Source: Roseococcus sp. SYP-B2431 (GTDB lineage Bacteria > Pseudomonadota > Alphaproteobacteria > Acetobacterales > Acetobacteraceae). From it: DNA of 64,000 nt. Shown here piece after piece: positions 6,676-63,474 of this stretch; position 1 is the stretch's first letter, and the number at the start of each line of letters is the position of its first letter. The position numbers and the translations under genes are program-made. The stretch is from contig NZ_SJXD01000030.1 of NCBI RefSeq assembly GCF_004336745.1, forward strand, positions 1 to 64,000. Reading direction: 5' to 3'. Below the pieces are notes generated by a model, which searched no databases, was not told the DNA's origin, and was given only the letters and a program-made list of their open reading frames with translations.

Positions 6676-6700
6676 AACGCCTCGCGGACAGGGAGGTTGC
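6676..6700 (-). promoter_or_regulatory. Predicted EcfG-like promoter of the DUF2171 gene
   Basis: On the minus strand, GCAAC (6700-6696), a 16-base spacer and CGTT (6679-6676), 50 bases before the ATG at 6626. The known EcfG consensus is GGAAC-N16/17-CGTT, so one -35 base differs. The same form recurs at five other places in the window. Confidence 0.55.
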
Positions 6701-6758
6701 CCCGGCAGGCTTACGGCGGGGTCATGCCACGGGTCACTTCCGTCGTGGGAACAGGAGC

Positions 6759-7967
6759 TTACGGCCGGGTGAGGCTCTCCATGGCCGCCTGCACGCCGCC
6801 CTTGGCGTGCGGCACGCCGGCGAGCCCCAGCGCCATCTCGAGCGAGGCCAGCGTGCCGAGGATCATCGGCTCGTTGAGGTCGCCCAGATGGCCGATGCGG
6901 AAGACCTTGCCCGACAGCTTGGCGAGCCCGCCGCCGGTGGAGACGTTGAACTTCTCCAGCGCGATCTTCCGCACGTCCTCGGCATTGATGCCCTCGGGCA
7001 TCAGCACGGCGGTGACGCTGTCGGAATAGCGCTCGGGATTCTGGCAGAAGAGCTGCGGGCCGCTATTGCCCGACCAGTGCTGCACGCAGGCACGGACCGC
7101 CTTGGCGAGCCGGGCATGACGCTTGAAGACGTTCTCGAGCCCTTCCTCCTCGAGCAGCAGGCGCAGCGCCTCCTGCAGCCCGTAGAACAGCGTCACCGGC
7201 ACGGTGCCGACGAAGCTCTTCTGCTTGCGGGCCAGCATCTCCGTCCAGTCGAAATAGTGGCGCGGATGCGTGCTCGCGCGATGCGCCGCCATGGCCTTCT
7301 CGGAGGCGCCGGTGAAGCTGAAGCCGGTCGGCAGCATGAGCCCCTTCTGGCTGCCGCCGACGCAGACATCGACGCCCCAATCGTCCATGCGGAAGTCGTA
7401 GCAGCCGAGCGAGCTGATCGTGTCCGCCATCAGCAGCGCCGGGTGCTTCAGCTCGTTCAGGATGGCGCGCACCTGGTCCAGCGGCAGGCGCATGCCGGCG
7501 GCCGTCTCGTTGTGGACGCAGCAGACGGCCTTGATCTCGTGGCCCGTGTCGGCGGCCAGCGCCTCGCGGATCGCGGACATCTCCACGCCGCGGCGCCAGT
7601 CGCAGGGGAGATGCTTCGTCCTGAAGCCCAGCGTGCCGCACATCTTCATCCAGGAATCGGAGAAGTGGCCGGTCTCGGGGATCAGCACGAGGTCGCCGGG
7701 CGACAGCGTGTTGACCAGCGAGGCCTCCCAGGCGCCGTGGCCCGAGGCCGTGTACATGAACAGGTGCTGCTCGGTCTTGATGACCTTCTTCAGCCCGGCG
7801 AAGCAGGCGTCGTAGACGGCGACGAAGGCGGGATCGTTGAAGTCGATGCTGGCGCGCGCGGTGGCGAGCAGCACGGAATCGGGAATGTTCGTCGGGCCCG
7901 GATTGGCGAAGAAGAGGCGGCCGCGCGCCATGGGGCGCGCGGGAGCCGGGGCTGTATGGCCGTCCAT
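6759..7967 (-). CDS. Class V aminotransferase, serine--glyoxylate aminotransferase type
   Basis: PLP enzyme of 402 residues, expected to transfer the amino group of serine (or alanine) to glyoxylate, giving glycine and hydroxypyruvate. The family start is FANPGPTNIPDSVL. Also present are the active-site stretch TASGHGAWEASL, the Asp in LLMADTISSLG and the PLP-binding Lys in CVGGSQKGLMLP; the C-terminal part RIGHLGDLNEPMI is typical. Length equals the SgaA family. ATG 7967 has AGGAAAG upstream; Met13 is a weaker alternative. It follows a TctC receptor gene on the same strand across a hairpin at 7990-8016, and may act on compounds that receptor binds. The exact amino donor is not determined. 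Confidence 0.82.
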   Translation of the reverse strand: MDGHTAPAPARPMARGRLFFANPGPTNIPDSVLLATARASIDFNDPAFVAVYDACFAGLKKVIKTEQHLFMYTASGHGAWEASLVNTLSPGDLVLIPETGHFSDSWMKMCGTLGFRTKHLPCDWRRGVEMSAIREALAADTGHEIKAVCCVHNETAAGMRLPLDQVRAILNELKHPALLMADTISSLGCYDFRMDDWGVDVCVGGSQKGLMLPTGFSFTGASEKAMAAHRASTHPRHYFDWTEMLARKQKSFVGTVPVTLFYGLQEALRLLLEEEGLENVFKRHARLAKAVRACVQHWSGNSGPQLFCQNPERYSDSVTAVLMPEGINAEDVRKIALEKFNVSTGGGLAKLSGKVFRIGHLGDLNEPMILGTLASLEMALGLAGVPHAKGGVQAAMESLTRP

Positions 7968-7989
7968 TGTTTCGTGACTTTCCTAGCGA

Positions 7990-8016
7990 CGTTCCGCCCC
8001 AGTATCGGGCGGAACG
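7990..8016. repeat. 10-bp perfect inverted repeat between tctC and aminotransferase genes
   Basis: Arms CGTTCCGCCC and GGGCGGAACG with a 7-base loop. It lies between the stop of the TctC gene (8040) and the start of the aminotransferase gene (7967). There is no T run on either strand, so a simple intrinsic terminator is unlikely. It could be an operator, an mRNA-processing hairpin or a partial attenuator. Confidence 0.5.
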
Positions 8017-8039
8017 CCGCTCTCTTCAACGCTCCGCTG

Positions 8040-9029
8040 TCAGCGCTGCAGCCGGACTCCGGTGCGGGCCACCACGTCGCGGTACTTCGCGACCTCCGCG
8101 GCCAGGAAGTCCCGCGCACCCTCGGGCGTATTGGCGCCGCTCCAGGCGGAAACGCCGGCGGTGAGCAGGCGTTCGCGGATCGGCGCCTCGGCGACGGTGG
8201 CGGCCAGCGCGCGGTTGAGCTGAGCGAGGACGGCCGGCGGGAGGCCGGGCGGGCCGATGATCATGTTCCAGGTGGTCATCTCGAAGCCTGGGATGGCGGC
8301 CTCGCCCAGGGTGGGGATGTCGGGGAAGGAGGGGAAGCGCTCGCGGCTCGTGACCGCCAGGCCGCGCACGAGCCCGTCGCGCACCTGGCCGGCCGCGCTC
8401 GCGAGCACGGCGATGCCGAACTGGCCTTCGCCCTGGTGGATCGCCGTCAGCATCAGGCCGCCGCTGCGATAGGGCACGTGGGTGAACCTCGCGCCGCCCA
8501 GCGCCAGGGCCATCACCTCGACGGCGAGATGCGGGATGGAGCCGACGCCGGAGGTGGCATAGGCGAATTCCTCGGGGCGCGAGGCGCGCAGGCGCTGCGC
8601 CACCTCGGTCGCCGTGCGGGCGGGGAAGTTCGGGTTGCTGACGAGGATGAGCGGCGCGGTGCCGACCATGCCGATATGCGTGAAGTCGGCGATCGGGTCG
8701 TAGGCCGTGCCGCCCTCGAGCGCCGCCGGCACGATGGCATGCGAGGAGACCTCGATCAGCATGATGGTATGGCCGTCGGGCGCCTGGCGCCGCAGCCAGT
8801 CGGAGGCCACGACGCCGGAGGCGCCGGCCCGGTTCTCCACCACCATGCGCCCGTTGGGCGAGAGGTTCTGGGCGAAGCGCTCGGAGATCAGGCGCGACGC
8901 GATGTCGGTGCTGCCGCCCGGCGCGAAGCCGGTGACGAGGGTGATGGCGCGTTCCGGATAGGTCTGCGCCGCCGACGGCGAGGCCAGCAGGGCCAGGGAC
9001 AGCGCGGCGAGCGCCAGGTTGCGAAGCAT
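8040..9029 (-). CDS. Tripartite tricarboxylate transporter (Bug/TctC) substrate-binding protein
   Basis: Periplasmic receptor of 329 residues with an N-terminal signal peptide (LALAALSLALLASPSAAQ). The family signature follows it: YPERAITLVTGFAPGGSTDIASR, then VVENRAGASG. The usual ligands are carboxylates such as citrate or nicotinate, or aromatic acids; the ligand here is unknown. No TctA/TctB membrane genes are adjacent, so it is an orphan receptor like most Bug proteins. GAGG precedes the ATG by seven bases. It is placed upstream of an aminotransferase and downstream of an Ldh2-type dehydrogenase, so an organic or amino-acid-derived substrate is plausible. Confidence 0.88.
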   Translation of the reverse strand: MLRNLALAALSLALLASPSAAQTYPERAITLVTGFAPGGSTDIASRLISERFAQNLSPNGRMVVENRAGASGVVASDWLRRQAPDGHTIMLIEVSSHAIVPAALEGGTAYDPIADFTHIGMVGTAPLILVSNPNFPARTATEVAQRLRASRPEEFAYATSGVGSIPHLAVEVMALALGGARFTHVPYRSGGLMLTAIHQGEGQFGIAVLASAAGQVRDGLVRGLAVTSRERFPSFPDIPTLGEAAIPGFEMTTWNMIIGPPGLPPAVLAQLNRALAATVAEAPIRERLLTAGVSAWSGANTPEGARDFLAAEVAKYRDVVARTGVRLQR

Positions 9030-9158
9030 GGACGATCCTCAACTCTTCTTGTCGCCGAACTAAGCCTCAGCGGAGGGAGGCATGCAAGCCGTTACGGCCG
9101 GCAAGCGGAAGCCGGCGCGCGGGGCGGGCCTCCTCGGCGATCTTCGCGGATGCCGGGC

Positions 9159-9836: not shown

Positions 9837-9846
9837 GCGCCCGCGC

Positions 9847-10932: not shown

Positions 10933-10997
10933 GCGCTTTTCCTCTTCTCGGGAGGAAATTGCCCCTGGCCGGCGGGCGCGTCCAGACCTGCGCCGGC

Positions 10998-11566: not shown

Positions 11567-12655
<1,089 letters not shown>

Positions 12656-18020: not shown

Positions 18021-18581
18021 CTAGCTCGGATTGATCCGCGTGATCTTCGTGCCGTTGAGCGCGACGGCCGCCATCAGGCCCTGCTGGCCGAAGGTGATCG
18101 CATAGACGGGCTCGCTCAGCGTCGTGGAGGTCGCATTGGCCTGCAGGCCGCGGTCGAGCGCCACGACGGTCGGGCCCGTGCCGATCTCCCAGCCATCGGC
18201 GTTCATCAGCGCGCGCAGGGCGTCGTCCGTCATGAAGAACATCGCGAGGCCCGCGGCCTGCGCGCCGGCCAGAAGGCCGAAGGACAGGCCGGCGATGTTG
18301 AAATAGCCGGTCGTCGCCTCGCCGCGGATCAGCGCGCCCTCGCCGAACTGGCCGCCCACGATGAAGCCGCCGCTGACGATGCGCGGGAAGACCAGGACCG
18401 CCCTGGCACGGCGGAACAGCGGGGCCGCATTTTCCATGCCCCGTAGCCGGACCAGGGCGGCCGAGACCTCGGAGTTGATTTCGGCGCGCGTGGCGGCCTG
18501 GGCGCGCCTTGGCGCCAGTACCGGCGCGGCGGCCAGGAACGGAAGCGCGGCCGCGGCGCGCGCAAGCTGACGACGTTGCAT
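18021..18581 (-). CDS. SYLF/Ysc84 domain exported protein
   Basis: 186 residues from ATG 18581, with AGGAG seven bases upstream. N-terminal signal peptide with a basic start (MQRRQLARAAAALPFLAAAP) and an RAQA cleavage region. The rest is a SYLF (DUF500) lipid-binding domain: RARAVLVFPRIVSGGFIVGG, a GYFNIAGLSFGLLAGAQ core and the LNGTKITRINPS end. Bacterial SYLF proteins are periplasmic or membrane-associated and often stress induced. A GCAAC-N16-CGTT motif lies 39 bases upstream, consistent with general-stress control. Confidence 0.85.
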   Translation of the reverse strand: MQRRQLARAAAALPFLAAAPVLAPRRAQAATRAEINSEVSAALVRLRGMENAAPLFRRARAVLVFPRIVSGGFIVGGQFGEGALIRGEATTGYFNIAGLSFGLLAGAQAAGLAMFFMTDDALRALMNADGWEIGTGPTVVALDRGLQANATSTTLSEPVYAITFGQQGLMAAVALNGTKITRINPS

Positions 18582-18619: not shown

Positions 18620-18644
18620 AACGCTGCCCATGAGGGATGGTTGC
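18620..18644 (-). promoter_or_regulatory. Predicted EcfG-like promoter of the SYLF gene
   Basis: Minus strand GCAAC (18644-18640), 16-base spacer, CGTT (18623-18620), with the -10 reading CGTTTT. It is 39 bases before the SYLF ATG. Confidence 0.55.
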
Positions 18645-48182: not shown

Positions 48183-50093
48183 TCAACTCGCCGAGGCGAG
48201 CTCCATCCCGCGCGGCTCGGGCGCCGCCTGCATGGCCCGCGCCGCGCGGTGCTCGCGGGCGGCGCGCAGCAGGACGTCGGAGGGCGCCTCCTCGGTCGGC
48301 ACGGTCAGCAGGCCACGCGCCCGCAGCCAGGCGGCGAGCCGGGTGCTGGCCGTCCAGGCGATCAGCCATGGGGCCGCCAGCAGCCCGACCAGCACGGGCG
48401 CCATCCAGGCGGCGAGCAGCGGGTTGATCGCCACGGCCAGGGCCGTCAGCACCACGCCCAGCGCCAGATGCGCGCGCGCCAGCCGCAGCGCCGCGCGGAA
48501 GGTGATGGCCTCGCCCTCCCGGCGCTGCGCGCTCCAGCCGCCGTCGCGGCCGAGCAGGATGCCCGCCACCTGCTGCGCCTGGGTCAGCATGGTCACCGGC
48601 GAGAGCAGCGAGGAGACGAGGATCTCCAGCACGCCGCTGGCCAGGACGCGGATCCCGCCCCTGCCGCGCCGCGCGACGACAAGGGCGATCAGGGCCATGA
48701 ACTTCGGCGCGAGCAGCAGCAGGAAGGTTCCCGCGAAGACCCAGAGGGCGCGCTCGGGATCGACCACCGGCCATTGCGGAAACAGCGCATGCGACTTCGG
48801 GAAGTATTCGGGCCGGATGAAGCGCGCCTGGAGCGAGACCGCGAGGCCGAGGACGAGGAAGCCCAGCCAGAACGGCGCGCTGAGATAGGCGGCGATGCCC
48901 GTCGCCATGTGCAGCCGGCTGAGCGGATGCAGCCCCGCCGTGCCGATCACCGCCGCGTGCTGGAGATTGCCCTGGCACCAGCGCCGGTCGCGCACGGCGA
49001 GGTCGGGCAGCGTGGGCGGCCCCTGCTCGTAGCTGCCGCCGGTGAGCGGGGCGAGGTGGATGGCCCAGCCGGCGCGCCGCATGAGCGCCGCCTCGACGAA
49101 GTCGTGGCTCAGGATATCGCCGCCGAAGGGCTTGCGGCCCGGCAGCCGCGGCAGGCCCGCCGCGCTCGCGAAGGCGCGCGTGCGGATCATGGCGTTGTGG
49201 CCCCAGTAGTTGCTGTCGGCGCCGGACCACCAGGCGAGGCCCTGCGCGATCAGCGGCCCATAGACCTGGCCGGCGAATTGCTGGAGCCGGGCGAAGAGAG
49301 TCTCGCCGCCATGCAGCAGCGGCAGCGTCTGGATGAGGCCGACATCGTCATGGCGCTCCATGGCCGCCGAGAGCGTGACGATCGTGCCGGCCTCCATCAG
49401 GCTGTCGGCGTCGAGGATGAGGAACTGCTCGTAGGCACCGCCGAAGCGCCGCACCCATTCCTCGATATTGCCCGCCTTGCGGCCCTTGTTATCCGTCCGG
49501 TGCCGGTAGAAGACCGCGGGGCCCGCCGCCTGGCCGAAGGCCATGGCCGCCTCGGCCTCCGCGTCGCGGATGGCGGGGTCGGTGGTGTCGCTCAGCACGA
49601 AGATGTCGAAATGCCCGGATGCGCCCGCAGCCTCGAAGGAGGCGCGCATGGCGGCGAGCGTGGCGCGCCAATGCGCTACGCTCTCGTTGTAGACGGGCAT
49701 GAGCAGCGCGGTGCGCGAGCGCAGCCGCGGCACCGGCGCCCGCAGGCCGAGCGGATCGGAGGCGAGGGCCATCGAGACCAGCCCCGCCAGCGCGCTGGTG
49801 AAGGCCAGGGCGATCCAGACGAAGAGCATCGCGAAGATGGCCGTCATCACCACGCCCATCACGCTCCAGCGCGACAGGCCGAGCACCAGCGACATCTCCG
49901 CCGTCGCGATTCCGGTGAGGGCGAGCGCGCTGCCGACGACCAGCAGCCGTCGCAGCCACATCAGGGGCGGCGCCGAAGGGCGCCGGGTCACCCCTGGCCG
50001 GGGCGCGCGGGAAAGATCCTGCGCCGGCATCGCCATGGGCCATTCCGGCGGCAGGAGCTCGAAGCCGGGCAGCGCCCGGCTCAGCCCGTCCAT
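48183..50093 (-). CDS. opgH: Glucans biosynthesis glucosyltransferase
   Basis: 636 residues. Membrane-bound family 2 glycosyltransferase of osmoregulated periplasmic glucan synthesis. Two N-terminal spans, then the cytoplasmic catalytic part: LMPVYNESVAHW, FVLSDTTDPAIRDAE, HRTDNKGRKAGNIEEWVRRFG, LDADSLMEAG, a TGGSYEQGPP segment and VRDRRWCQGNLQH (Q-x-x-R-W-like), followed by further spans. It is shorter at the N-terminus than E. coli OpgH. ATG 50093 overlaps the end of opgG by 13 bases. Confidence 0.92.
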   Translation of the reverse strand: MDGLSRALPGFELLPPEWPMAMPAQDLSRAPRPGVTRRPSAPPLMWLRRLLVVGSALALTGIATAEMSLVLGLSRWSVMGVVMTAIFAMLFVWIALAFTSALAGLVSMALASDPLGLRAPVPRLRSRTALLMPVYNESVAHWRATLAAMRASFEAAGASGHFDIFVLSDTTDPAIRDAEAEAAMAFGQAAGPAVFYRHRTDNKGRKAGNIEEWVRRFGGAYEQFLILDADSLMEAGTIVTLSAAMERHDDVGLIQTLPLLHGGETLFARLQQFAGQVYGPLIAQGLAWWSGADSNYWGHNAMIRTRAFASAAGLPRLPGRKPFGGDILSHDFVEAALMRRAGWAIHLAPLTGGSYEQGPPTLPDLAVRDRRWCQGNLQHAAVIGTAGLHPLSRLHMATGIAAYLSAPFWLGFLVLGLAVSLQARFIRPEYFPKSHALFPQWPVVDPERALWVFAGTFLLLLAPKFMALIALVVARRGRGGIRVLASGVLEILVSSLLSPVTMLTQAQQVAGILLGRDGGWSAQRREGEAITFRAALRLARAHLALGVVLTALAVAINPLLAAWMAPVLVGLLAAPWLIAWTASTRLAAWLRARGLLTVPTEEAPSDVLLRAAREHRAARAMQAAPEPRGMELASAS

Positions 50094-51607
50094 CGGAAGG
50101 CCCAGCTCTCGGAAACGGCCGCCTGGTTCCGCGTGAGGCGCGCGCGCAGCTCGACGACGCGCGCGCTGCCGGGGTTGAGCTCGAAGGCGAGGCGCAGGCC
50201 GCCGGTCTCGCGATTGGGCTGCAGCACCACGTTCTGCACCGTGCCCGCGCTGTTCTCCACGGCGACTTCGGGCATGGCGTCGCCTGGTCCCGCGAGGAGA
50301 GGGTCCGTGTCGAGCACGAAGAGCTTCGCGCGGCTGTCGCCCACGGCGCCAATGCGCGTCGCGGTGAAGCGCGCGAGCCGGCGGTCCGCCGGCTCCTCCG
50401 CGGACCAGTGCAGCCGGTAGCGCAGCTCGATGGGCGTGTTCGCCTTGAGCGCCGCCGAGGGCGCCCAGAGGGCGGCGATGTTGTCGTGGATCTCGCTCTG
50501 CGTCGGGATCTCCACCAGCCGCACCTCGCCGGCGCCCCAATCCTGCAGGGGCTCGGTCCAGAGGCTCGGCCGGCGGTGATACTCGGCGCCGAGATCCTGG
50601 TAGTCGGCGAAGGCGCGGGCGCGCTGCACGAGGCCGAAGCCGCGCGGCGTGGCATCCTGGAAGCCGCTGACCTGGAGGTCGCGCGGATTGGCGAGCGGCC
50701 GCCAGATCTGCTCGCCGCGGCCGTTGCGGATCATCAACCCGTCGGAATCATGCACCGCGGGGCGATAGTCGCTCACGCCGTCCCGGTCCTGCGGGCCGAA
50801 GAAGAACATGCTGGTCGCCGGCGCCACGCCGATCCCCGCCACGTCCTGCCGCGGGAAGAGCGTGGCTTGCACCTCGGTCGTGGTGGTGTCGCCGGGCGTC
50901 ACCGTGATGCGATAGGCGCCGGCCAGGCTCGGGCTTTCCAGCAGGGCGTGGATCACGGCCGCCGTGTCGCCGGGCTTGGGCTTCTCCAGCCAGAAGGCGG
51001 TGAAGGCGGGGAACTCCTCGCCCTGCGGATCGGCGGTGCGGATGGACAGAGCGCGTGCGGAGAGCCCGTAGACGTTGCCTCGCCCCAGCGCGCGGAAGTA
51101 GCTGGCGCCCAGGAAGGAGCAGAGCTCGTCGAAATGGTCGGGCCGGTTCAGCGGCGACAGGAGCCGGAAGCCCGCGAAGCCGATATCCTCGTCCTCGCCC
51201 AGCGCCTGCACGTCCTCGTAGCGGAACTGCGCGGCGCGGAAGCGGATGGGCGTGGCCTGGCCCTCGGTGACCTCGAAGAGGTCCACACGGTCCTTGAACA
51301 GGAAGCCGCGATGATGCGGCTGCATGCGGAAAGGCGAGGCCGGGTCGGACCACCAGGCCTGCGCCGCGTCGAAGCGGATCTTCCGGTAGCCGTCATAGTC
51401 CAGCCGGTCCAGCTGGCGCGGCAGCGCGGCCTGGCGCCGGCGATAAGGCTGCGATGCGATGGTCCTCGCCAGTTCCGGCACGGTATTGGCGTCGAAGGCC
51501 ACCGGCCCGCGCTGCTCGGCGGGAAGGCTCTGCGTGGTGCCGCCCGTGTTTCCGAACAGGGCGGGAGCTCCCGCCACGGCGCCGATGAGAAGGCCGCGTC
51601 GCTGCAT
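50081..51607 (-). CDS. opgG: Glucans biosynthesis periplasmic protein
   Basis: 508 residues. N-terminal signal (MQRRGLLIGAVAGAPALFGN). The OpgG beta-sandwich and immunoglobulin-like domains show LDYDGYRKIRFDAAQAWW, FRYEDV, GFAGFRLLSPLNRPDHFDELCSFLGASYFRALGRGNVYGLSARAL and DSDGLMIRNGRGEQIWRPL. Together with OpgH it makes periplasmic glucans protecting against low osmolarity. AAGGGA precedes ATG 51607. A GCAAC-N16-CGTT motif 205 bases upstream, with a 31-codon reading frame in between, suggests stress control. Confidence 0.93.
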   Translation of the reverse strand: MQRRGLLIGAVAGAPALFGNTGGTTQSLPAEQRGPVAFDANTVPELARTIASQPYRRRQAALPRQLDRLDYDGYRKIRFDAAQAWWSDPASPFRMQPHHRGFLFKDRVDLFEVTEGQATPIRFRAAQFRYEDVQALGEDEDIGFAGFRLLSPLNRPDHFDELCSFLGASYFRALGRGNVYGLSARALSIRTADPQGEEFPAFTAFWLEKPKPGDTAAVIHALLESPSLAGAYRITVTPGDTTTTEVQATLFPRQDVAGIGVAPATSMFFFGPQDRDGVSDYRPAVHDSDGLMIRNGRGEQIWRPLANPRDLQVSGFQDATPRGFGLVQRARAFADYQDLGAEYHRRPSLWTEPLQDWGAGEVRLVEIPTQSEIHDNIAALWAPSAALKANTPIELRYRLHWSAEEPADRRLARFTATRIGAVGDSRAKLFVLDTDPLLAGPGDAMPEVAVENSAGTVQNVVLQPNRETGGLRLAFELNPGSARVVELRARLTRNQAAVSESWAFRWTG

Positions 51608-51811: not shown

Positions 51812-51836
51812 AACGCGGCGGGCGGAAGGCGGTTGC
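51812..51836 (-). promoter_or_regulatory. Predicted EcfG-like promoter upstream of opgG
   Basis: Minus strand GCAAC (51836-51832), 16-base spacer, CGTT (51815-51812). It is 98 bases before the 31-codon frame and 205 before opgG. Confidence 0.5.
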
Positions 51837-51838: not shown

Positions 51839-52006
51839 TCAGGCCGGCATCTGGCTGCGGTCCACCATGGTGGTGAACCAGCTGCCGTCCTCGCCGCGGT
51901 ACATGACCCACCAGGGCTCGCCCCTGCGCTTCGGCACCATGGCGTATTGCGCGAAGATCGTGCCGTTCGGCGTGTGGAGCTTCATCGGCCTTGCGAAAGC
52001 GAGCAT
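51839..52006 (-). CDS. Small 55-residue protein
   Basis: 55 residues from ATG 52006 with GGGGAG seven bases upstream. The sequence is rich in Trp, Tyr and basic residues (PMKLHTPNGTIFAQYAMVPK, then GEPWWVMYRGEDGSWF), which looks like a folded beta hairpin rather than random codons. It lies 31 bases after the histidine kinase stop on the same strand and just before the opgG promoter. No family recognised. Confidence 0.6.
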   Translation of the reverse strand: MLAFARPMKLHTPNGTIFAQYAMVPKRRGEPWWVMYRGEDGSWFTTMVDRSQMPA

Positions 52007-52037: not shown

Positions 52038-53048
52038 TCAACGCGGCCCGTCCATGCGGGTTGCCGATGATGGGAAGTTCACGATCACGCAGGCCCCCCC
52101 GTCCGGAACGTTCTCCAGCCGGAATGAGCCCCCGAGCCGCTGCGCGAAGCCGTCCATGATGGTCGTGCCCAGCCGCGGCCGATCCTGGGTCGCGCCGCTG
52201 AGGCCATGCCCGTCGTCGCGTACCGTCAGGCACAGCTCCCCGCCCAGATGCCGCAGCGCGATGGCGAGCCTTCCGGCCGGCCGGCCCGCGAAGCCATGCT
52301 TCACGCTGTTCATCACCGCCTCGGCGACGATCATGGCGACCAGCGTGGCCGGGTTGTGGCCCAGGGGCGGCGCCTGGACCAAGACCTGGACGGCGATGTC
52401 GTCGCGGCCCACCGAGCGCAGCAGGTCGAGCGTCAGCGCGTCCAGCGCCTCCGCGAGCTGCTCCCCGCCAAGCTCGGGATCGTGCAGGCGCCGATGCACC
52501 GTAGCGACGCCGTGCAGCCGCTGCACCGCCTCGGCCAGCGCGGCCTCGGCATCCGCCATATCCGTGATCCGTGCCGACTGGATGGAGAGGATCGAGGCGA
52601 GCGACTGGATGCTGTTGGCCACGCGGTGCTGCAGCTCGTGATAGAGATGCCGCTCATGGGCGAGCAGCTTCTCGATATCCTGCCGCGCCGTCACGAGCTG
52701 CGCGGCGGCGGCGTGCAGGATCTCGATCAGGCCGATCTGGCCGCCGGCGACCAGGACGAAGAGCCCGAGCGCGATTGCGCCCTGCGGCCAGGCGAGCTCG
52801 AAGGAGTGGTAGGGCGGCAGGAAGAAGTACCAGGCCGCGACCGCCGAGGCCGCCAGTACCGCCGCCGCCGGCCGCCAGCCGGCGAAGACCGCGGTCACGA
52901 AGATCGCCAGGAAGAAGGTGGCGAAGGGCACACCCTCGATGCCCAGGAGCCAGCGCAGGCCGAAGGCCGCCCCGAAGGCCGCGGCGCCGAGCGCCAGGCC
53001 TCCCGCCAGCCCTCGGCGAGGGCCGGCCAGTTTCGTGATGAGGGGCAT
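52038..53048 (-). CDS. Membrane sensor histidine kinase, HisKA_2 type
   Basis: 336 residues. Four N-terminal spans in a DUF4118/KdpD-like arrangement (LRWLLGIEGVPFATFFLAIF, AAWYFFLPPYHSFEL). A HisKA_2 dimerisation domain follows with the phospho-acceptor His141 in YHELQHRVANSIQSLASIL, and a HATPase domain with VAEAVMNSVKHGF, VRDDGHGL and RLGTTIMDGFAQRLGG. HisKA_2/HWE kinases are the class that feeds PhyR in the general stress response. No dedicated response regulator is adjacent. ATG 53048. Confidence 0.87.
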   Translation of the reverse strand: MPLITKLAGPRRGLAGGLALGAAAFGAAFGLRWLLGIEGVPFATFFLAIFVTAVFAGWRPAAAVLAASAVAAWYFFLPPYHSFELAWPQGAIALGLFVLVAGGQIGLIEILHAAAAQLVTARQDIEKLLAHERHLYHELQHRVANSIQSLASILSIQSARITDMADAEAALAEAVQRLHGVATVHRRLHDPELGGEQLAEALDALTLDLLRSVGRDDIAVQVLVQAPPLGHNPATLVAMIVAEAVMNSVKHGFAGRPAGRLAIALRHLGGELCLTVRDDGHGLSGATQDRPRLGTTIMDGFAQRLGGSFRLENVPDGGACVIVNFPSSATRMDGPR

Positions 53049-53905: not shown

Positions 53906-55612
53906 TCAGGCCTGCGGCTGAAGCGCGGGGACGGGGTCGCCCACGCCGCCGGTCATCGCCGCCTCCACCTCGGCGAGCAGCCCGGGCAAGGTCGGGAGCG
54001 GGGTGATCCCGGGACGCCGATGGAGCCCGCCGGCCGCCTCGTCCGTCGGCGCGAAGATCAGCACCTGGTCCGAGAGCTGCCGCGCCGATGCGAGGGCGCG
54101 GTCGAGCCGCCGGGGTGGCGCGTCCGTCGCGGCCACCAGCACGACCAGCGTGGGATCGGAGGCCTCGGCGGGCGTGAGGGTCGCAAGCTGCCCCACCTCC
54201 TGGAGCGCCACCACCACGGCCGCCGCGGCGGCACGGTCCAGCGCGCCCGCGACCGGCAGGACCAGGATGTCCGCCGGTCCGTCGATCCCGTGGGACACCG
54301 CTTCCATCACCCGGGTCAGCGCGCGCGAGGCGCGGATGGCCAGCGCCGGGCCGAAGGCCTCGTTCGGGCGGTCGGTGGAGATCTGCGCGATGGCGGGCAT
54401 CACCATCTGGTCCAACGCCGATTCCACGCCGATCCGCCCGGCCTCGGTGCCGAGCAGCGCGGCCGCGTTCAGCGCATCGTCCGCCAGCAGGCGCTGGTAG
54501 AATCGGGCCGGCGCGGGCAGGGGCGGCGTATCGCCGAGCAGCACGTCGAGGAAGGCGAGCGTCCGCACGTGCCGGCCGAGGATCACCAGGCAGGCCGTGA
54601 TCGCCGGCGCCAGGATCAGCCCGAGCGGCCCCCACATCACCGCCCAGAAGGCCGAGGCGAGCAGCAGCGCCAGCGGCGTGATGCCCATGCTGCTGCCGTA
54701 GAGCCAGGGCTCCAGCACATAGGTCACCGTCACGTCCACGAACGCGAAAAGCGCGATCACCAGCAGCACGGTGGCCCAGCCCTCGGTGGTGGCGAAGGCG
54801 ACGATGAGCGGGAAGAGCATGGAGAGCGGCGCGCCGAGGAAAGGCACGAAGCGCAGCGCGAAGCCGAGCGCGCCCCAGAGCGGCGCATTTGGCACGCCGA
54901 GCAGCCACAGGCCGATGCCCATCGACAGCCCGAAGATGCCGTTGACCATGGCCTGCATCAGCAGGAAGCGACCGACGCGCGCGGTGGCATCGGCCATGGC
55001 GCCCGTGGTGCGATGCATCTCATGCAGGCCGGCGAGGCGCAGCACCCGGTCGCGCACGTCCTCGCGCTGGATGAGGATGAAGGCCATCAGCAGCAGCGTG
55101 ATGGCGAAGGTCGCGACCGGCGCGATGATGACCACCGCGAGGCCGAAGAGCGTGGAAAGCGGCCCCTGGTCCGAAGCCGCGACCGCCACGGTCTGGGTCG
55201 GAGTCGCCTGCGCCGGCGCCAGCACCTCGCCCAGGCGCTTCGCGAGCCGCATCACGCCATCGATCGGGCCGGAGCCGTCCTGGCTGATGGATTGCAGCTT
55301 CTCGCGCAGCACGTTTTCGTAGTTGGGAAGCTCGGCCGCCAGCGCCATGGCCTGGGTCAGCACGACGTAGACGAGCCCCCCGACGATGGCCAGGAAGAGC
55401 GCCATGACCAGCAGCACGGCCGCGACGCGGGGAAAGCTGCGGCGCTCGAGCCAGCTCACGGCCGGCATCGCCGCGATGGTCAGCAGCAAGGCCAGCGCGA
55501 GCGGCGCGAAGACCTCCCGGCCCAGGTAGAGCGCGGCGATCACGGCGGCGAAGATGAGCAGGCGCGACGGCCAGTCACGTGAGACGGGCGCTGGCGGGCG
55601 GAAAGGGGCCAT
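53906..55612 (-). CDS. AI-2E family permease with extra C-terminal domain
   Basis: 568 residues. The PerM/TqsA-like core of about eight spans has the conserved LFPLIVAFATTEGWATVLLVIALFAFVDVTVTYVLEPWLYGSSMGITPLALLLA. After it comes a cytoplasmic C-terminal extension of about 180 residues (from about residue 385) with USP-like alternation (VVVALQEVGQLATLTPAEAS). The family exports signal molecules or ions; the substrate here is unknown. ATG 55612; an EcfG-like promoter begins 25 bases upstream. Divergent from the DUF883 gene. Confidence 0.85.
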   Translation of the reverse strand: MAPFRPPAPVSRDWPSRLLIFAAVIAALYLGREVFAPLALALLLTIAAMPAVSWLERRSFPRVAAVLLVMALFLAIVGGLVYVVLTQAMALAAELPNYENVLREKLQSISQDGSGPIDGVMRLAKRLGEVLAPAQATPTQTVAVAASDQGPLSTLFGLAVVIIAPVATFAITLLLMAFILIQREDVRDRVLRLAGLHEMHRTTGAMADATARVGRFLLMQAMVNGIFGLSMGIGLWLLGVPNAPLWGALGFALRFVPFLGAPLSMLFPLIVAFATTEGWATVLLVIALFAFVDVTVTYVLEPWLYGSSMGITPLALLLASAFWAVMWGPLGLILAPAITACLVILGRHVRTLAFLDVLLGDTPPLPAPARFYQRLLADDALNAAALLGTEAGRIGVESALDQMVMPAIAQISTDRPNEAFGPALAIRASRALTRVMEAVSHGIDGPADILVLPVAGALDRAAAAAVVVALQEVGQLATLTPAEASDPTLVVLVAATDAPPRRLDRALASARQLSDQVLIFAPTDEAAGGLHRRPGITPLPTLPGLLAEVEAAMTGGVGDPVPALQPQA

Positions 55613-55634: not shown

Positions 55635-55661
55635 GCAACGCGAAGTGCCCCTCCGCGTTGC
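55635..55661. promoter_or_regulatory. Palindromic EcfG-like promoter serving both strands
   Basis: Plus strand GCAAC (55635-55639), 16-base spacer, CGTT (55656-55659). The same DNA on the minus strand gives GCAAC (55661-55657), 16 bases, CGTT (55640-55637). The arms GCAACGCG/CGCGTTGC form an 8-base perfect inverted repeat. It can drive the AI-2E gene (25 bases to ATG) and the DUF883 gene (155 bases). Confidence 0.55.
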
Positions 55662-55813: not shown

Positions 55814-56095
55814 ATGGCCTACCCCGAGACCCCTTCCGAGGTTCCCCCCCACATGGCGGACACCCACGCCGAGATCGCCGCGCTCCGCGCCAAGATCGAG
55901 ACGCTGATGAACGATCGCGTGACGCCTGCCGTCGCCCGCGCCGCCGACAGGGCCGAGGCCGTCGCACACCAGGCCACCGACACCATCCGCGACCAGACCG
56001 AGCGGCTGAGCGGCGCCATCCGCGAGAAGCCGCTCACCGCCGTCGGCCTCGCCGCGCTGGCGGGCTACGTCTTCGCCGTCATGTGCCGCCGCTGA
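55814..56095 (+). CDS. DUF883/ElaB-YqjD-like membrane-anchored protein
   Basis: 93 residues. Amphipathic helix (AEIAALRAKIETLMNDRVTPAVARAADRAEAVAHQATDTIRDQTERL) followed by the C-terminal anchor REKPLTAVGLAALAGYVFAVMCRR. The family in E. coli (YqjD, ElaB) is stress- and stationary-phase-induced and binds ribosomes. The TGA overlaps the next ATG by one base (TGATG). ATG 55814 is preceded by AAAGGACAGGACC. Confidence 0.88.
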   Translation: MAYPETPSEVPPHMADTHAEIAALRAKIETLMNDRVTPAVARAADRAEAVAHQATDTIRDQTERLSGAIREKPLTAVGLAALAGYVFAVMCRR

Positions 56096-56538: not shown

Positions 56539-56563
56539 GCAACCCGGGCCGGAACCGCGGGTT
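56539..56563 (+). promoter_or_regulatory. Near-match EcfG-like promoter of the PRC-barrel gene
   Basis: GCAAC (56539-56543), 16-base spacer, GGTT (56560-56563): one base off CGTT. It ends 38 bases before the ATG of the PRC-barrel gene. Confidence 0.35.
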
Positions 56564-56601: not shown

Positions 56602-57174
56602 ATGGACCGCCACCACGAACCGCACAAGCCGCTGCTGTGGATGATCCTGGTCGCCGGCCTCATGGCCGCGCCGGTCTTCGCGCTCGCGCAAAGCCCCTCG
56701 CCTCCCGGCACCGTGCCGAGCCCCAGCGCCTCGCCTGCGATTCCGGATACCGCGCCCGCCCGCAGCCCGACCGGCGTGCCGGCCGCCATCGCCCCGCAGG
56801 TGGGAGCACCCTCAAACCCCCCGGCATCGGCGGCGCCCGGCGCGATGCTGACGCGGGGCGCGGCGCTGCTCAGCCAGCCCCGTATCAGCAGGCTCCTCGG
56901 GAGCCGGATCTACAACGACCGCAACCAGGCGATCGGTGAGGTGGAGGAGGTTCTGCTCGCGCCGCCCGTCACGCCGGCGGCGCCCTCGTCCCTCGGCCCC
57001 GTCGCCATCGTCCAGCTCGGCGGCTTCCTGGGCATGGGCGGGCGGCTCGTCTCCGTGCCGCTGGGCGACCTGCGCTGGAGCGCCGAGCGTGGGCGCATCA
57101 CCATGCCGGGCGCCACGCAACAGGCGTTGCGCGCCCGCCCGGCCTTCGACTACGGAATGTTGCTCGACCCGTGA
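56602..57174 (+). CDS. PRC-barrel domain exported protein
   Basis: 190 residues. Signal anchor (LLWMILVAGLMAAPVFALAQ), a Pro/Ser-rich linker (SPSPPGTVPSPSASPAIP), and a PRC-barrel domain (ISRLLGSRIYNDRNQAIGEVEEVLL to VPLGDLRWSAERGRITMPGA). PRC-barrels are small ligand- or RNA-binding folds; exported versions are common in alphaproteobacteria. AAGGA precedes the ATG. Its TGA overlaps the GTG of the YihY gene. Confidence 0.8.
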   Translation: MDRHHEPHKPLLWMILVAGLMAAPVFALAQSPSPPGTVPSPSASPAIPDTAPARSPTGVPAAIAPQVGAPSNPPASAAPGAMLTRGAALLSQPRISRLLGSRIYNDRNQAIGEVEEVLLAPPVTPAAPSSLGPVAIVQLGGFLGMGGRLVSVPLGDLRWSAERGRITMPGATQQALRARPAFDYGMLLDP

Positions 57175-58291: not shown

Positions 58292-58297
58292 GAAGCT

Positions 58298-58322
58298 GCA
58301 ACCCTGCGGCAGTCCGAACGTT
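58298..58322 (+). promoter_or_regulatory. Predicted EcfG-like promoter of the repeat lipoprotein
   Basis: GCAAC (58298-58302), 16-base spacer, CGTT (58319-58322), 55 bases before the ATG at 58377. Confidence 0.55.
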
Positions 58323-58376: not shown

Positions 58377-58703
58377 ATGCATATCGCCCGTCTCCTGCCC
58401 GCCGGCCTGCTGCTCCTCGGCGTCGCCGCCTGCACGGACCCGAATGACGGCCGCCGCGGCAACCCGCCCGGCACCGCCGCGGAGCGCGCCCTCGACCGCA
58501 GTGCGGGCACGAACACCTCGGGCGCCTATCCGCGCCAGTCGGACGGCACGCCCGGGAACCCGCCCGGCACCGCGGCCGAGCGCGCCCTGGACCGCGCCGC
58601 CGGCACCAACACCTCCGGCGCCTATCCCTCGCAGTCGGACGGCACGCGCAACAACCCCCGCGGCACGGCGGCGGGCCGCGCGCTCGGCACCACGACGCGA
58701 TGA
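58377..58703 (+). CDS. Small lipoprotein with tandem 32-residue repeats
   Basis: 108 residues. Lipoprotein signal LLPAGLLLLGVAAC with Cys19 as the lipidation site. The mature part consists of two full copies of a 32-residue unit (GNPPGTAAERALDR, AGTNTSGAYP, QSDGT) at about 28-59 and 60-91, and a third, partial, at 92-108. The repeats differ at only a few residues. GGAAGGAAATTTC precedes ATG. Acidic/basic, hydrophilic and low in hydrophobic residues, so probably unstructured and surface- or periplasm-exposed. Function unknown; predicted general-stress promoter upstream. Confidence 0.8.
   Translation: MHIARLLPAGLLLLGVAACTDPNDGRRGNPPGTAAERALDRSAGTNTSGAYPRQSDGTPGNPPGTAAERALDRAAGTNTSGAYPSQSDGTRNNPRGTAAGRALGTTTR
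58458..58700 (+). repeat. 96-base tandem repeat inside the lipoprotein gene
   Basis: Two full 96-base units (58458-58553 and 58554-58649) plus a partial third (58650-58700), all in frame, encoding the 32-residue protein repeat. Confidence 0.75.
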
Positions 58704-58739
58704 TCCCCAGGGGCGCGTGACGCCGCGTCCCATCCTGAT

Positions 58740-58776
58740 GGGCGCGGCCGCTTCCCCGGAAGCGGCCGCGCCCTTT
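58740..58776 (+). terminator. Intrinsic-type terminator after the lipoprotein gene
   Basis: Perfect 16-base arms GGGCGCGGCCGCTTCC (58740-58755) and its complement (58758-58773) with a two-base loop, followed by TTT. Strong hairpin between the lipoprotein stop and the next gene; the T run is short. Confidence 0.75.
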
Positions 58777-58805
58777 GCATGTTCGGAGGGCCGCGTGGCC
58801 GGATC

Positions 58806-60424: not shown

Positions 60425-60427
60425 CGG

Positions 60428-62296
60428 TCAATGCGCGGGCTGCGTCCGCTTGAGCGCGCGCCGCTCGGCCCGGGCCTCCTTCGCCGCCCGCGCCATGGCG
60501 CGCGGCCATTGCCGCTTCGTCGCGCGCCGCTGCGGCCGCGCCAGCCGCGCCCCGCCTTCGGCCCGCAGCAGGTCCAGCGTGCGCGTGTGGAAGGCGGCGA
60601 GGCCGGGGCGATGGCCGATGGAGATCAGCCCCGCCTCCGGCAGCTCGTCCAGCACCAGCTGCATCATCGCGTCCTGATTCGCCTCGTCGAGCGCGGCCGT
60701 CGCCTCGTCCATGAAGATCCAGCGCGGCTTCTGCAGCAGCAGCCGCGCGAAGGCGAGGCGCTGCTGCTCCCCGAGGCTGAGGACGCGGTCCCAGCGATCC
60801 TCGTCGTTGAGTTGGTCGACCAGCCGCTCCAGCCCGACCTTCCGCAGGGCTTCCGCGATGGCCTCGTCCTCGAAGGCGTCCGGCCCGGCCGGGTAGGAGA
60901 TGGCCGTGCGCAAGGTGCCGAGCGGGAGATAAGGCCGCTGCGGCATGAACATCATGCCCTTGCGCGGCGGCGTGCGGATCTCGCCCGCGCCCCAGGGCCA
61001 GAGCCCGCCGATCGCGCGGAACAGCGTGGATTTTCCCGTGCCCGATTCGCCCTTGATGAGCACGCGCTCGCCGGCCTGGATCTCGGCCGAGGCATTGGCG
61101 ATCACGGTGGTGCCGTTGGAGAAGGCGACCTCCAGGTTGTTCAGCACCAGCTTGTCCTCCTCGGTCTCCTGCACCTCGATGGTGGGCTGGTCCGGATCGT
61201 CGATGAGCGTGTCCAGCTCCTCGATCACGTCGCGGAAGGTGATCACGCGCTGCACGGCGCTGCGCCACTGGGCGATGAGGCCGAAATTGTCCACGAACCA
61301 GTTGAGCGCGCCCTGCACCTGGCCGAAGGCGGCGCCGATCTGCATCAGCCCGCCCAGCGTGATGGCGCCGGCGAAATAGGCCGGCGAAGCCACGATGGTC
61401 GGGAAGATCATGGCCAGCGTGCCATAGGCGCTGGTCAGCCACATGAGGTTGCGCTGGCTGCGCATCAGCCCGCGCCAGGAGCCCTTCACCTGCTCGAAGA
61501 GCGAGGTGAGGCCGCGCCGCTCGTCCGCCTCGCCGCGGATCAGGGCGATGCCCTCGCCGCTCTCGCGGGCGCGGTTGAGGCCGAAGCGGAAATCCGCCTC
61601 CGCGGTCGTGCGCTCCACGTTCAGCCGCACCATGGGCCGGCCGACGAACCAGGTCAGGAAGGTGCCGACCAGCGCGTAGAGCAGCGCGGCCCAGACCATG
61701 TAGCCGGGAATCTCCACCTCGCGCCCGGCGAGGGCGAGGTGCAGCGGGCCGGAGACGGTCCAGAGAATGCCGATGAAGGCCGTCAGCATCATCAGCGAGT
61801 TGATGATGCCCACGCCGAAATCGAGCGCGAGGTCGGTCGAGATCCGCACGTCCTCGGAGATGCGCTGGTCGGGATTGTCCGTGCTGCCCGCCATCTCGAG
61901 CTGATAGTGGCGCCCGTCGCGCAGCCAGGCCTCGGTGAGGTGGCGCGTGAGCCATTCGCGCCAGCGGAGCTGCGCCAGCTGCTTCACGTAGAGCTGGTAG
62001 ACGGCGACGCCCATCGAGAGCGCGGCGAAGCCCAGGAAGACCAGGATCTGCGTGCGGAAGGCCGCGCCGTCGCGGCTCTCCAGCGCATTGAAGAAGTCGC
62101 GGTTCCAGAGGTTCAGCCGGATCTGGATCGCCACCTGCGCCACGGTGAGCGCCAGCAGGAAGAAGAGCAGCCAGCGCGCATTGCCCCGATCCGGCGCGCG
62201 CAGCCAGACACGGGTGAGCTGGCCGAAGGCGCGGATGGAATGCTCCGCCTGTTGTTCGTGGAGGAGGCGGGCGTCGTCATCCGTCGTATTGCTCAT
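60428..62296 (-). CDS. SbmA/BacA-like ABC transporter fused to ATPase
   Basis: 622 residues. N-terminal ABC_membrane_2 part with about six spans (RWLLFFLLALTVAQVAIQIRLNLWNRDFFNALESRDG is the SbmA/BacA-type start) fused to an ATPase: Walker A IKGESGTGKST, signature LSLGEQQRLAFARL, Walker B RWIFMDEATAALDE. The ATPase part has SLGEQQ instead of SGGQ. Such YddA-type exporters/importers act on peptides, vitamin B12 or very long acyl chains. ATG 62296 overlaps the upstream gene by four bases. Confidence 0.88.
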   Translation of the reverse strand: MSNTTDDDARLLHEQQAEHSIRAFGQLTRVWLRAPDRGNARWLLFFLLALTVAQVAIQIRLNLWNRDFFNALESRDGAAFRTQILVFLGFAALSMGVAVYQLYVKQLAQLRWREWLTRHLTEAWLRDGRHYQLEMAGSTDNPDQRISEDVRISTDLALDFGVGIINSLMMLTAFIGILWTVSGPLHLALAGREVEIPGYMVWAALLYALVGTFLTWFVGRPMVRLNVERTTAEADFRFGLNRARESGEGIALIRGEADERRGLTSLFEQVKGSWRGLMRSQRNLMWLTSAYGTLAMIFPTIVASPAYFAGAITLGGLMQIGAAFGQVQGALNWFVDNFGLIAQWRSAVQRVITFRDVIEELDTLIDDPDQPTIEVQETEEDKLVLNNLEVAFSNGTTVIANASAEIQAGERVLIKGESGTGKSTLFRAIGGLWPWGAGEIRTPPRKGMMFMPQRPYLPLGTLRTAISYPAGPDAFEDEAIAEALRKVGLERLVDQLNDEDRWDRVLSLGEQQRLAFARLLLQKPRWIFMDEATAALDEANQDAMMQLVLDELPEAGLISIGHRPGLAAFHTRTLDLLRAEGGARLARPQRRATKRQWPRAMARAAKEARAERRALKRTQPAH

Positions 62297-62943
62297 CGGC
62301 GTAGCTCGGGCAGTCCTTCCAGGGAATTCTGATCCTTGCCCAGGCGTTGGGCATCGATGGCGGCGAGGTTGCCGCGCCGCGTGCCGAGGCCCTCCGCCGC
62401 GACCGTCCCGCCCACGGCGAGCCGGTCGCCGAGCGCCTTGTGGTGTTCGACGCCGAGTCGGATGCTGCCGCCCTCGGCGAGGATCACGCCCATGCTCTCG
62501 CCCTGCGGCGTCAGCAACGGCGCCTGCACCCGGCCGGAGAGGGTGATCCGTTCCGTGCCGGTGGCCGTGCTGGCGAACCAGGCGGGGCGCTCGACGAAGC
62601 TCGCCGGATCGGAATCGACCTTGGCCCAGGCCAGAAGGGTGACCACCGGGGCGGTGCGGGCGCGAATGCCCCAGACGGCGATGGAGCCGCCGCGCTCGAT
62701 GGCGCCCATCAGCGCCTCGGCCTCGGAGGGCGGGAAGACGAACTGCGTCCCCTCGCGGAACAGACCACGGTCCACCTCGCCGGCGGGGTTGGAGATCCAG
62801 CGCTCCAGCCGTCCGGAATAGGAGGGGAGCTGCGTCGGGTCGAACCACAATCCGCGGGGGTCGCGGGCCCGGACGGGCGAGGCCCCGAAGGGCATCGCCA
62901 GCGCGGCGGCGCCGCCCGTCAGCAGGATGCGCCGGCCGATCAT
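62293..62943 (-). CDS. Exported protein of unknown function coupled to the ABC transporter
   Basis: 216 residues from ATG 62943. N-terminus MIGRRILLTGGAAALAMPFG, then a cleavable signal region with RR, so Tat or Sec export is likely. The mature protein has an OB-like beta pattern (TERITLSGRVQAPLLTPQGESMGVILAEGGSIRLGV). It starts one base after the DUF1328 stop and overlaps the ABC gene (ATGA). Family not recognised. An upstream TTG start (62955) is possible. Confidence 0.65.
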   Translation of the reverse strand: MIGRRILLTGGAAALAMPFGASPVRARDPRGLWFDPTQLPSYSGRLERWISNPAGEVDRGLFREGTQFVFPPSEAEALMGAIERGGSIAVWGIRARTAPVVTLLAWAKVDSDPASFVERPAWFASTATGTERITLSGRVQAPLLTPQGESMGVILAEGGSIRLGVEHHKALGDRLAVGGTVAAEGLGTRRGNLAAIDAQRLGKDQNSLEGLPELRR

Positions 62944-62944
62944 G

Positions 62945-63109
62945 TCAGAAACCAAAGCCGCGGCCGGTCAGCAGCGAGACGGCGAAGAGCACCAGGAAGA
63001 TGAAGAACAACACACGGGCGATGCCCGTGGCCGTGGAGGCGATGCCGCCGAATCCGAACAGGCCGGCAATCAGGGCGACCACAAGGAAGATGATGGTCCA
63101 GGTGAGCAT
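62945..63109 (-). CDS. DUF1328 family small membrane protein
   Basis: 54 residues. [20 protein letters not shown], then [21 protein letters not shown], the whole being two hydrophobic helices typical of DUF1328. GGAAGGGG precedes ATG 63109. Small stress-associated membrane proteins of this family are common near csbD. The next gene starts one base after its stop. Confidence 0.85.
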
Positions 63110-63207
63110 GGCCCCTTCCTTTCGCTATCGAAACGCATTGGAGGCGACGACGCCGCCGGCCCTGCTGGAACCGGCGGCGCCCGAAGCCGTCACGAAGCGG
63201 TACGAGC

Positions 63208-63405
63208 CTAGTAGCGGCTCTCCCAATCCTTCACCTGCGCCTCGGCCTCGTCCTTGGCGATGCCGTAGCGCTCCTGGATCTGGCCGATGAGCTGCTCGCG
63301 GCGGCCCTCGATGACGGTCATGTCGTCATCGGTGAGCTTGCCCCACTGCTCCTTGACGGAGCCGGTCATCTGCTTCCAGTTGCCCTTGATCGTGTCCCAG
63401 TTCAT
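63208..63405 (-). CDS. CsbD family stress protein
   Basis: 65 residues. CsbD consensus MNWDTIKGNWKQMTGSVKEQWGKLTDDD, then EGRREQLIGQIQERYGIAKDEAEAQVKDWE. Small cytoplasmic stress protein, sigma-factor controlled in many bacteria. AAAGGAG before ATG 63405 gives an excellent start. EcfG-like promoter 44 bases upstream, between this gene and phyR. Confidence 0.93.
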   Translation of the reverse strand: MNWDTIKGNWKQMTGSVKEQWGKLTDDDMTVIEGRREQLIGQIQERYGIAKDEAEAQVKDWESRY

Positions 63406-63448
63406 TTGCGTTCTCCTTTAGATCCACCTGTTGGCGGTGTGCGGGATT

Positions 63449-63474
63449 AACGCATGATGGAGGCCGGGAGTTGC
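63449..63474 (-). promoter_or_regulatory. Predicted EcfG-like promoter of csbD
   Basis: Minus strand GCAAC (63474-63470), 17-base spacer, CGTT (63452-63449, reading CGTTAA), 44 bases before the csbD ATG. Confidence 0.6.

What the first reader, a model, noticed from the sequence alone, without database searches (positions are those of the whole stretch)
6676..63474. Recurring GCAAC-N16/17-CGTT motif upstream of stress-type genes
Seen in the sequence: exact matches at 6676-6700, 18620-18644, 51812-51836, 55635-55661 (both strands), 58298-58322 and 63449-63474. All lie in intergenic DNA and point at DUF2171, SYLF, opgG, AI-2E/DUF883, a repeat lipoprotein and csbD. Five of the downstream starts lie 25-100 bases away; DUF883 and opgG are farther. 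Known: the EcfG consensus is GGAAC-N16/17-CGTT, and PhyR, found at the right edge, controls EcfG. Inference: these are promoters of a lineage-specific general-stress regulon whose -35 is GCAAC. My rough estimate at 70% GC is about 0.3 chance matches per 64 kb at one spacing on both strands.
Basis: partly seen in the sequence, partly recalled or inferred. Interest (0 to 1): 0.75.

Follow-up and report, generated by a model that had tools for sequence, protein, structure and literature searches.

The report
Stress-gene promoters with altered recognition sequence
This bacterium appears to mark dozens of its stress-protection genes with a one-letter variant of the usual alphaproteobacterial stress promoter, and the change goes together with one changed amino acid in the protein that should read that letter.

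Summary
The genome has 63, against 22 for the reversed pattern. Of the 63, 46 are intergenic and 38 lie on the right strand up to 200 bp before a start; reversed control 1 of 22. GGAAC, the textbook EcfG -35, is nearer background (32 versus 22). ecfG, just outside the window beside phyR and a nepR-like gene, has the motif 32 bp before its start.

The variant marks one clade. Where EcfG has Cys in place of the Ser that contacts -35 base 2 in M. tuberculosis SigH, promoter-like sites near ecfG are C 75, A 19, G 4; in Ser-type relatives of the same family C 8, G 9, A 3; in other families G 33, C 6. The Cys form arose once, so the link is one event, not replicated.

GCAAC is already known as a working minority EcfG -35 (PMC7083833). 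New here are its dominance and a candidate specificity residue. No expression data.

The parts
6676..6700 (-). GCAAC-N16-CGTT promoter candidate, 49 bp before DUF2171 gene 6384-6626
6384..6626 (-). DUF2171 gene (PF09939)
18620..18644 (-). GCAAC-N16-CGTT promoter candidate, 38 bp before gene 18021-18581
18021..18581 (-). Ysc84/SYLF-domain gene (PF04366)
51812..51836 (-). GCAAC-N16-CGTT site, 204 bp before the opgG-like gene 50081-51607
   Evidence: glucan biosynthesis protein G by similarity
52040..52064 (-).
51839..51985 (-). 48-aa ORF with a PWW motif; similar ORFs in two other genomes also have GCAAC...CGTT upstream
55635..55659 (+). GCAAC-N16-CGTT site, 154 bp before gene 55814-56095 (93 aa)
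55637..55661 (-). overlapping divergent GCAAC-N16-CGTT site, 24 bp before the AI-2E family transporter gene 53906-55612 (PF01594)
56539..56563 (+). weaker relative (GCAAC-N16-GGTT), 38 bp before gene 56602-57174
58298..58322 (+). GCAAC-N16-CGTT site, 54 bp before lipoprotein-like gene 58377-58703
63449..63474 (-). GCAAC-N17-CGTT site, 43 bp before csbD
63208..63405 (-). csbD (PF05532)
63482..64000 (-). phyR, 3' part; the gene continues right of the window (L031:3483-4196, minus). ecfG (L031:4643-5278) and a nepR-like gene (L031:5287-5505) follow, with GCAAC sites at L031:4586 (+, 32 bp before ecfG) and L031:4519 (-, 322 bp before phyR)

Best explanation
The motif is the EcfG-dependent general-stress promoter of this genome. 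The sigma factor EcfG, released when phosphorylated PhyR captures its anti-sigma factor NepR, should direct RNA polymerase to -35 GCAAC and -10 CGTT, 16 or 17 bases apart, upstream of an estimated 40-50 genes, ecfG itself among them (autoregulation). Relative to the usual GGAAC, the second -35 base has shifted from G to C (to A second most often) in one clade of family f1. The best candidate cause is Cys157 of EcfG, which replaces the Ser that in M. tuberculosis SigH (S182) hydrogen-bonds O6 of that second G; the Arg that reads the first G is kept (R161 here, R186 in SigH). Shown by sequence: enrichment, position, strand bias, gene content, a site before ecfG, the clade-wide shift, the residue change. 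Inferred: that EcfG drives these promoters, and that the Cys causes the shift. The partner-switch mechanism is established knowledge from other alphaproteobacteria, not shown here. The score below is for the promoter reading and the shift of base 2; for the Ser-to-Cys cause alone I would say 0.4.
For: Window 8 versus 0.41 expected; genome 63 versus 22 reversed; GGAAC 32 versus 22. 38 of 63 GCAAC sites promoter-like, against 4.6% of random positions in the window and 5 of 24 GGAAC sites read (Fisher p 0.0015), and 1 of 22 reversed-pattern sites. Strand matters: 25 sites are promoter-like only as read, 2 only if flipped (two-sided p 6e-6). Median distance to the start 43 bp. Site 32 bp before ecfG; EcfG and PhyR domains above Pfam cut-offs except PhyR_sigma-like and NepR, both just below. 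Downstream genes include CsbD, DUF2171, PRC-barrel, Ku, pyridoxamine-oxidase-like, DUF3309 and glycine zipper. Base 2 near ecfG: Cys clade C75 A19 G4; Ser type of the same family C8 G9 A3; other families G33 C6 (Fisher on sites, G versus not G, Cys versus Ser within the family, p 9e-6; loci with any GGAAC 4 of 28 versus 6 of 11, p 0.017). csbD promoters (genes picked by their N-terminal motif): Cys clade C12 A1; Ser type of the family G1; other families G3 C1. Contacts in SigH: PMC6411747 passages; residue alignment. In C. glutamicum the residues that differ between SigH and SigD include the matching Ser (Val in SigD), with -35 base 2 G versus T (PMC11588781 passages). EcfG transcribes a GCAAC promoter in vitro in S. 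granuli (PMC7083833).
Against: No transcript or binding data. Gene calls and starts come from a home-made codon-model caller. Seventeen of 63 sites are inside called genes and 8 intergenic ones failed the promoter-like test; with a background of about 22, perhaps a third are chance. GGAAC is not wholly unused: 5 of 24 sites read are promoter-like, above the random baseline (p 0.004), as are 3 of 9 GTAAC sites (p 0.007). Ser-type EcfGs in the same family already use many GCAAC sites (8 of 20), so the Cys cannot be the whole cause. The Cys form is one origin, so the association is unreplicated, and sites and loci within the clade are not independent. Four GGAAC sites persist in the Cys clade, all in genus g10.
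Confidence: 0.85

Rival explanations
1. The sites are read by another ECF sigma factor, for instance the ECF gene that lies in tandem upstream of ecfG in many relatives, not by EcfG.
For: A second ECF gene with Ala at the key position lies just upstream of ecfG in many of the 20 family-f1 loci read.
Against: Searched with the G012 copy, the window's genome has as best match EcfG itself (42%), then two of 33 and 35%, yet the motif is strongly enriched here. ecfG carries the motif upstream, and the downstream genes include EcfG-type targets. Other ECF sigma factors of this genome were not surveyed.
Confidence: 0.06
2. The motif is a two-fold symmetric operator (GCAACG...CGTTGC) of a transcription factor, not a promoter.
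For: GCAAC and CGTT are partly each other's reverse complement; 3 overlapping both-strand pairs exist among the 63 matches. The letter after CGTT is G in 17 of 31 sites, as symmetry would want.
Against: Strand bias, 25 versus 2. The letter after GCAAC is C in 18 and G in 11 of 31, whereas symmetry would need G; the second letter after CGTT is C in only 13 of 31. Spacing is 16-17, as for EcfG promoters.
Confidence: 0.04
3. The shift to C at base 2 is family-wide relaxation or drift, and the Ser-to-Cys change is a bystander.
For: Ser-type members of family f1 are already mixed (C8 G9 A3; upstream of DUF1328 C6 A4 G3 in the 13 of 30 loci where a site was found, partly the same sites, looser pattern). 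Ser-type genomes of other families can also be mixed (G124 and G098, each C2 G1). One origin only.
Against: G almost vanishes only in the Cys clade (4 of 98 versus 9 of 20), and the changed residue is the one known to contact that base. GC content alone does not explain it: G145 (0.70) is G5 C1 and G115 (0.69) is G5.
Confidence: 0.45
4. Chance matches in intergenic DNA.
For: The reversed control finds 22 genome-wide.
Against: 63 versus 22; 38 of 63 versus 1 of 22 promoter-like; the same boxes before csbD and DUF1328 genes in relatives.
Confidence: 0.01

Closest known systems
EcfG (ECF15) general stress response promoters, GGAAC-N16/17-CGTT
   Same: Same -10, spacing, closeness to the start, several target types, a site before ecfG, and a phyR-nepR-ecfG locus.
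   Different: -35 base 2 is C (A second), less often G; in other families near ecfG it is G in 33 of 39.
GCAAC minority promoters of Sphingopyxis granuli and Sphingomonas melonis (PMC7083833: passages and section 11; PMC6599016: passages)
   Same: Same GCAAC -35; in S. granuli a GCAAC/CGTT promoter is among the templates transcribed by EcfG1 and EcfG2 in vitro. Table 1 of PMC6599016 lists a GCAAC motif before a general stress protein 26 gene; here a GCAAC site precedes a pyridoxamine-oxidase-like gene.
   Different: There the motif found is GGAAC with GCAAC as a lesser form; here GGAAC is near background genome-wide.
Corynebacterium glutamicum SigH versus SigD -35 specificity (PMC11588781, passages)
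   Same: A change at the matching recognition-helix position (Ser to Val) goes with a change of -35 base 2 (G to T).
   Different: Different sigma factors, and several residues differ at once; that the position matches is my reading of the motif, not an alignment I ran.

Membership tests
EcfG / ECF15 general stress response system | sigma factor with ECF sigma-2 and sigma-4 domains | tested here: met
   Pfam Sigma70_r2 and Sigma70_r4_2 above cut-off; the best PDB sequence match (5uxx_A) aligns over residues 19-168 with a GCAIGTIKSRVSRAR helix.
EcfG / ECF15 general stress response system | adjacent phyR (sigma-like domain plus receiver) | tested here: met
   PhyR_sigma2 and Response_reg above cut-off; PhyR_sigma-like 24.1 bits against a cut-off of 27.
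EcfG / ECF15 general stress response system | adjacent nepR anti-sigma factor | tested here: met
   Borderline: PF18557 E 1.3e-5 but 25.2 bits against a curated cut-off of 25.7; ORF directly downstream of ecfG.
EcfG / ECF15 general stress response system | partner switching: NepR binds EcfG, phosphorylated PhyR binds NepR | not testable with these tools
   needs biochemistry
EcfG-dependent promoter | -10 CGTT, spacing 16-17, close before starts | tested here: met
   38 of 63 GCAAC sites are promoter-like; of these 31 have spacing 16 and 7 have 17, median distance 43 bp. The pattern itself fixed CGTT and 16-17, so only the position is an independent test.
EcfG-dependent promoter | transcription depends on EcfG | not testable with these tools
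   no expression data; in vitro precedent for GCAAC only in S. granuli
canonical GGAAC consensus | G at -35 base 2 | tested here: not met
   0 in window; GGAAC 5 of 24 sites read promoter-like versus GCAAC 38 of 63.

The most novel reading that the evidence does not exclude
A single Ser-to-Cys substitution in the -35 recognition helix of the master stress sigma factor re-specified its promoters once, in the ancestor of a many-genus clade, and a whole regulon of several dozen promoters followed from GGAAC to GCAAC/GAAAC while -10, spacing and gene content stayed.
Probability: 0.4. Interest if true: 0.65.

Novelty: new variant of a known kind. Interest (0 to 1): 0.5.

Why it matters
Searches with the GGAAC consensus would miss most of the predicted general stress regulon in this clade. 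If the Cys is the cause, it is a natural case of a global sigma factor changing its DNA specificity at one base while its regulon is kept, with Ser-type relatives of mixed preference as possible intermediates. That makes the question of how a whole regulon changes its recognition sequence testable with one residue and one base.

Tried and rejected
The genome-contig scan with EcfG returned mostly Actinobacteria and no close relatives; of its 80 loci only 8 alphaproteobacterial ones were looked at, and they are in no count. The first comparative script miscalled frames in GC-rich loci; it was redone with two starting models, and only one search is used.

Raw genome counts across 60 genomes of the order are noisy because the reversed control differs widely between genomes. 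Summed: 8 genomes with a Cys EcfG, GCAAC/control 460/220 and GGAAC 328/294; 34 other EcfG-bearing genomes, 1462/1542 and 1192/1595; 16 without an EcfG match at E <= 1e-42, 490/571 and 479/888. G017 and G057, with weak EcfG matches (E 6e-43 and 1e-42) that hold a stop, were left out; G006, whose match also holds a stop, was kept. The residue was not read in all 34. Genome-wide the family's Ser-type genomes thus show no clear excess of either form as a group.

The tandem-ECF rival was tested and found unlikely. DUF1328 upstream regions in Ser-type genomes: of 30 loci, 13 had a site, 6 had none, and in 11 my script did not locate the ORF. Organism not identified: plasmid searches gave only distant hits or none; the name Acetobacteraceae for family f1 is my inference and comes from no call. 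Rfam: no match in the window. Pyrimidine-purine preference 8-9 bases after CGTT (C 21 of 31, then A or G 24 of 31; p 3e-4 for the first alone) fits a start site, but many columns were looked at.
Full report
Observation. GCAAC-N16/17-CGTT occurs 8 times in the window on both strands, against 0.41 in dinucleotide shuffles. The textbook form GGAAC-N16/17-CGTT does not occur in the window. Among 360 letter permutations of the two boxes, the real pair included, GCAAC/CGTT has 7 hits within 220 bp upstream of called starts, the next best 3, the mean 0.11.

Genome. The window is contig C30:1-64000 of a 4.71-Mb genome in 31 contigs. GCAAC-N16/17-CGTT: 63 matches; read backwards, 22. GGAAC: 32 versus 22. 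GWAAC: 41 versus 21. I called genes with a codon model trained on the window and read the surroundings of all 63 GCAAC sites, 24 of 32 GGAAC sites and 33 of 41 GWAAC sites. Promoter-like means intergenic with a same-strand start from -5 to 200 bp downstream: GCAAC 38 of 63, GAAAC 14 of 24, GGAAC 5 of 24, GTAAC 3 of 9; random positions in the window 4.6%, and all four exceed that baseline (p 1e-34, 2e-13, 0.004, 0.007), GCAAC far more than GGAAC (Fisher p 0.0015). Reversed-pattern control: 1 of 22. If the strand is flipped, 15 of 63 GCAAC sites are promoter-like, 13 of them in both senses.

The regulator. Just right of the window lie phyR (minus), ecfG (plus) and a nepR-like gene (plus; just below Pfam's cut-off). 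A GCAAC site lies 32 bp before ecfG, and another points at phyR from 322 bp. In the window phyR is the truncated gene at 63482-64000.

Genes behind the sites. In the window: DUF2171, Ysc84/SYLF, AI-2E transporter, CsbD, plus a 93-aa gene, a 48-aa ORF and a 108-aa lipoprotein-like gene without Pfam match, and an opgG-like gene. Elsewhere I scanned 30 proteins, 29 behind GCAAC sites and one (DUF892) behind a GAAAC site: DUF3309, SH3, glycine zipper, DUF72, DUF748/AsmA (below cut-off), fasciclin, PEP carboxylase, ATPase_gene1, DUF892, Ku, flavin reductase, pyridoxamine-oxidase-like, NAD epimerase, CheB, chalcone-synthase-like, DUF6311, DUF6894, PRC-barrel, DUF3775, ABM; 10 had no Pfam match. Ku, PRC-barrel and general stress protein 26 appear among the top EcfG-regulated genes of S. 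melonis (PMC6599016, Table 1 passage).

Clade. I read about 9-20 kb around ecfG in 60 loci of family f1 (58 genomes) and around the best EcfG match in 40 loci of other families (39 genomes), and counted promoter-like GNAAC-N16/17-CGTT sites by base 2 (lengths). EcfG with Cys, 32 loci: C75 A19 G4. EcfG with Ser in f1, 28 loci: C8 G9 A3. EcfG with Ser in other families and a nepR or phyR recognised by motif beside it, 17 loci: G33 C6. In f1 no such neighbour was demanded; one was recognised in 28 of the 32 Cys and 25 of the 28 Ser loci. The remaining 23 loci of other families, set aside as not securely EcfG, give G10 A1 C1. The window's own genome is not in these tallies. csbD promoters: Cys clade C12 A1, Ser f1 G1, others G3 C1; DUF1328: Cys clade C8 A5, Ser f1 C5 A2 G2, others G3 (genes picked by N-terminal motif). 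On an EcfG tree of 78 rows the Cys form is one fully supported group, one change. So the association is statistically strong but evolutionarily one event.

Residue. In the M. tuberculosis SigH open complex, R186 contacts the first G and S182 the second G of the -35 (PMC6411747, passages). In the alignment Cys157 of this EcfG lies opposite that Ser, and R161 opposite R186 (residue numbers of this EcfG). In C. glutamicum the residues that differ between SigH (GGAAT) and SigD (GTAAC) include the Ser of the TVMSR motif, Val in SigD (PMC11588781, passages). Hence the proposal that loss of the Ser hydroxyl removes the preference for G. That Ser-type members of f1 are already mixed argues that other changes came first.

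What is known. EcfG promoters are described as GGAAC-N16-CGTT or close to it (PMC7083833 and PMC6599016, passages); in S. granuli GGAAC and GCAAC are the two most frequent -35 boxes, and a GCAAC promoter (gsp) is among those transcribed in vitro by both EcfGs (PMC7083833, section 11 read). My searches of the held open-access library for EcfG with GCAAC (2 papers, both sphingomonads), for two of EcfG, NepR, Acetobacteraceae and Roseomonas (139 papers, 20 listed) and for related terms (30 papers, 12 listed) showed no listed title on an EcfG regulon in this family; one listed paper mentions ecfG only as not expressed in an Acetobacteraceae strain (PMC10949492, passages). Subscription papers are not held and the listings were cut, so this is weak evidence of absence.

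Verdict. It is a new variant of a known promoter class: same kind of regulator, same -10 and spacing, altered -35 base 2, with a specific testable candidate cause.

Noticed in passing
window 51839-51985 (-): 48-aa ORF with a PWWVMYR stretch; similar small ORFs in L186 (G036) and L276 (G338), each with a GCAAC...CGTT site upstream. Possibly a conserved, easily overlooked stress-regulon gene.
   Followed up: partly
window 55635-55661: Overlapping divergent promoter pair sharing its boxes, possible because GCAACG and CGTTGC are reverse complements. Two more such pairs among the 63 genome matches (C1:212449 and C1:614755).
   Followed up: no
L031:4643-5505: Gene order is ecfG then nepR, with phyR divergent; in G051 (L194) a NepR-like ORF also follows ecfG. 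In Sphingopyxis granuli nepR2 precedes ecfG1 (PMC7083833).
   Followed up: no
L182-L190, L193-L200: A second ECF sigma gene (Ala in the place of the key Ser) lies directly upstream of ecfG in 17 of the 20 family-f1 loci, but has no close counterpart in the window's genome.
   Followed up: partly
L272/L273 (G221), L274/L275 (G335): Two EcfG copies in one genome, all four with Cys.
   Followed up: no
[quoted passage not shown] some small genomes (G007, G021, G059) keep it.
   Followed up: no
window 56539-56563 (+): GCAAC-N16-GGTT 38 bp before gene 56602-57174, a possible further member with a variant -10.
   Followed up: no
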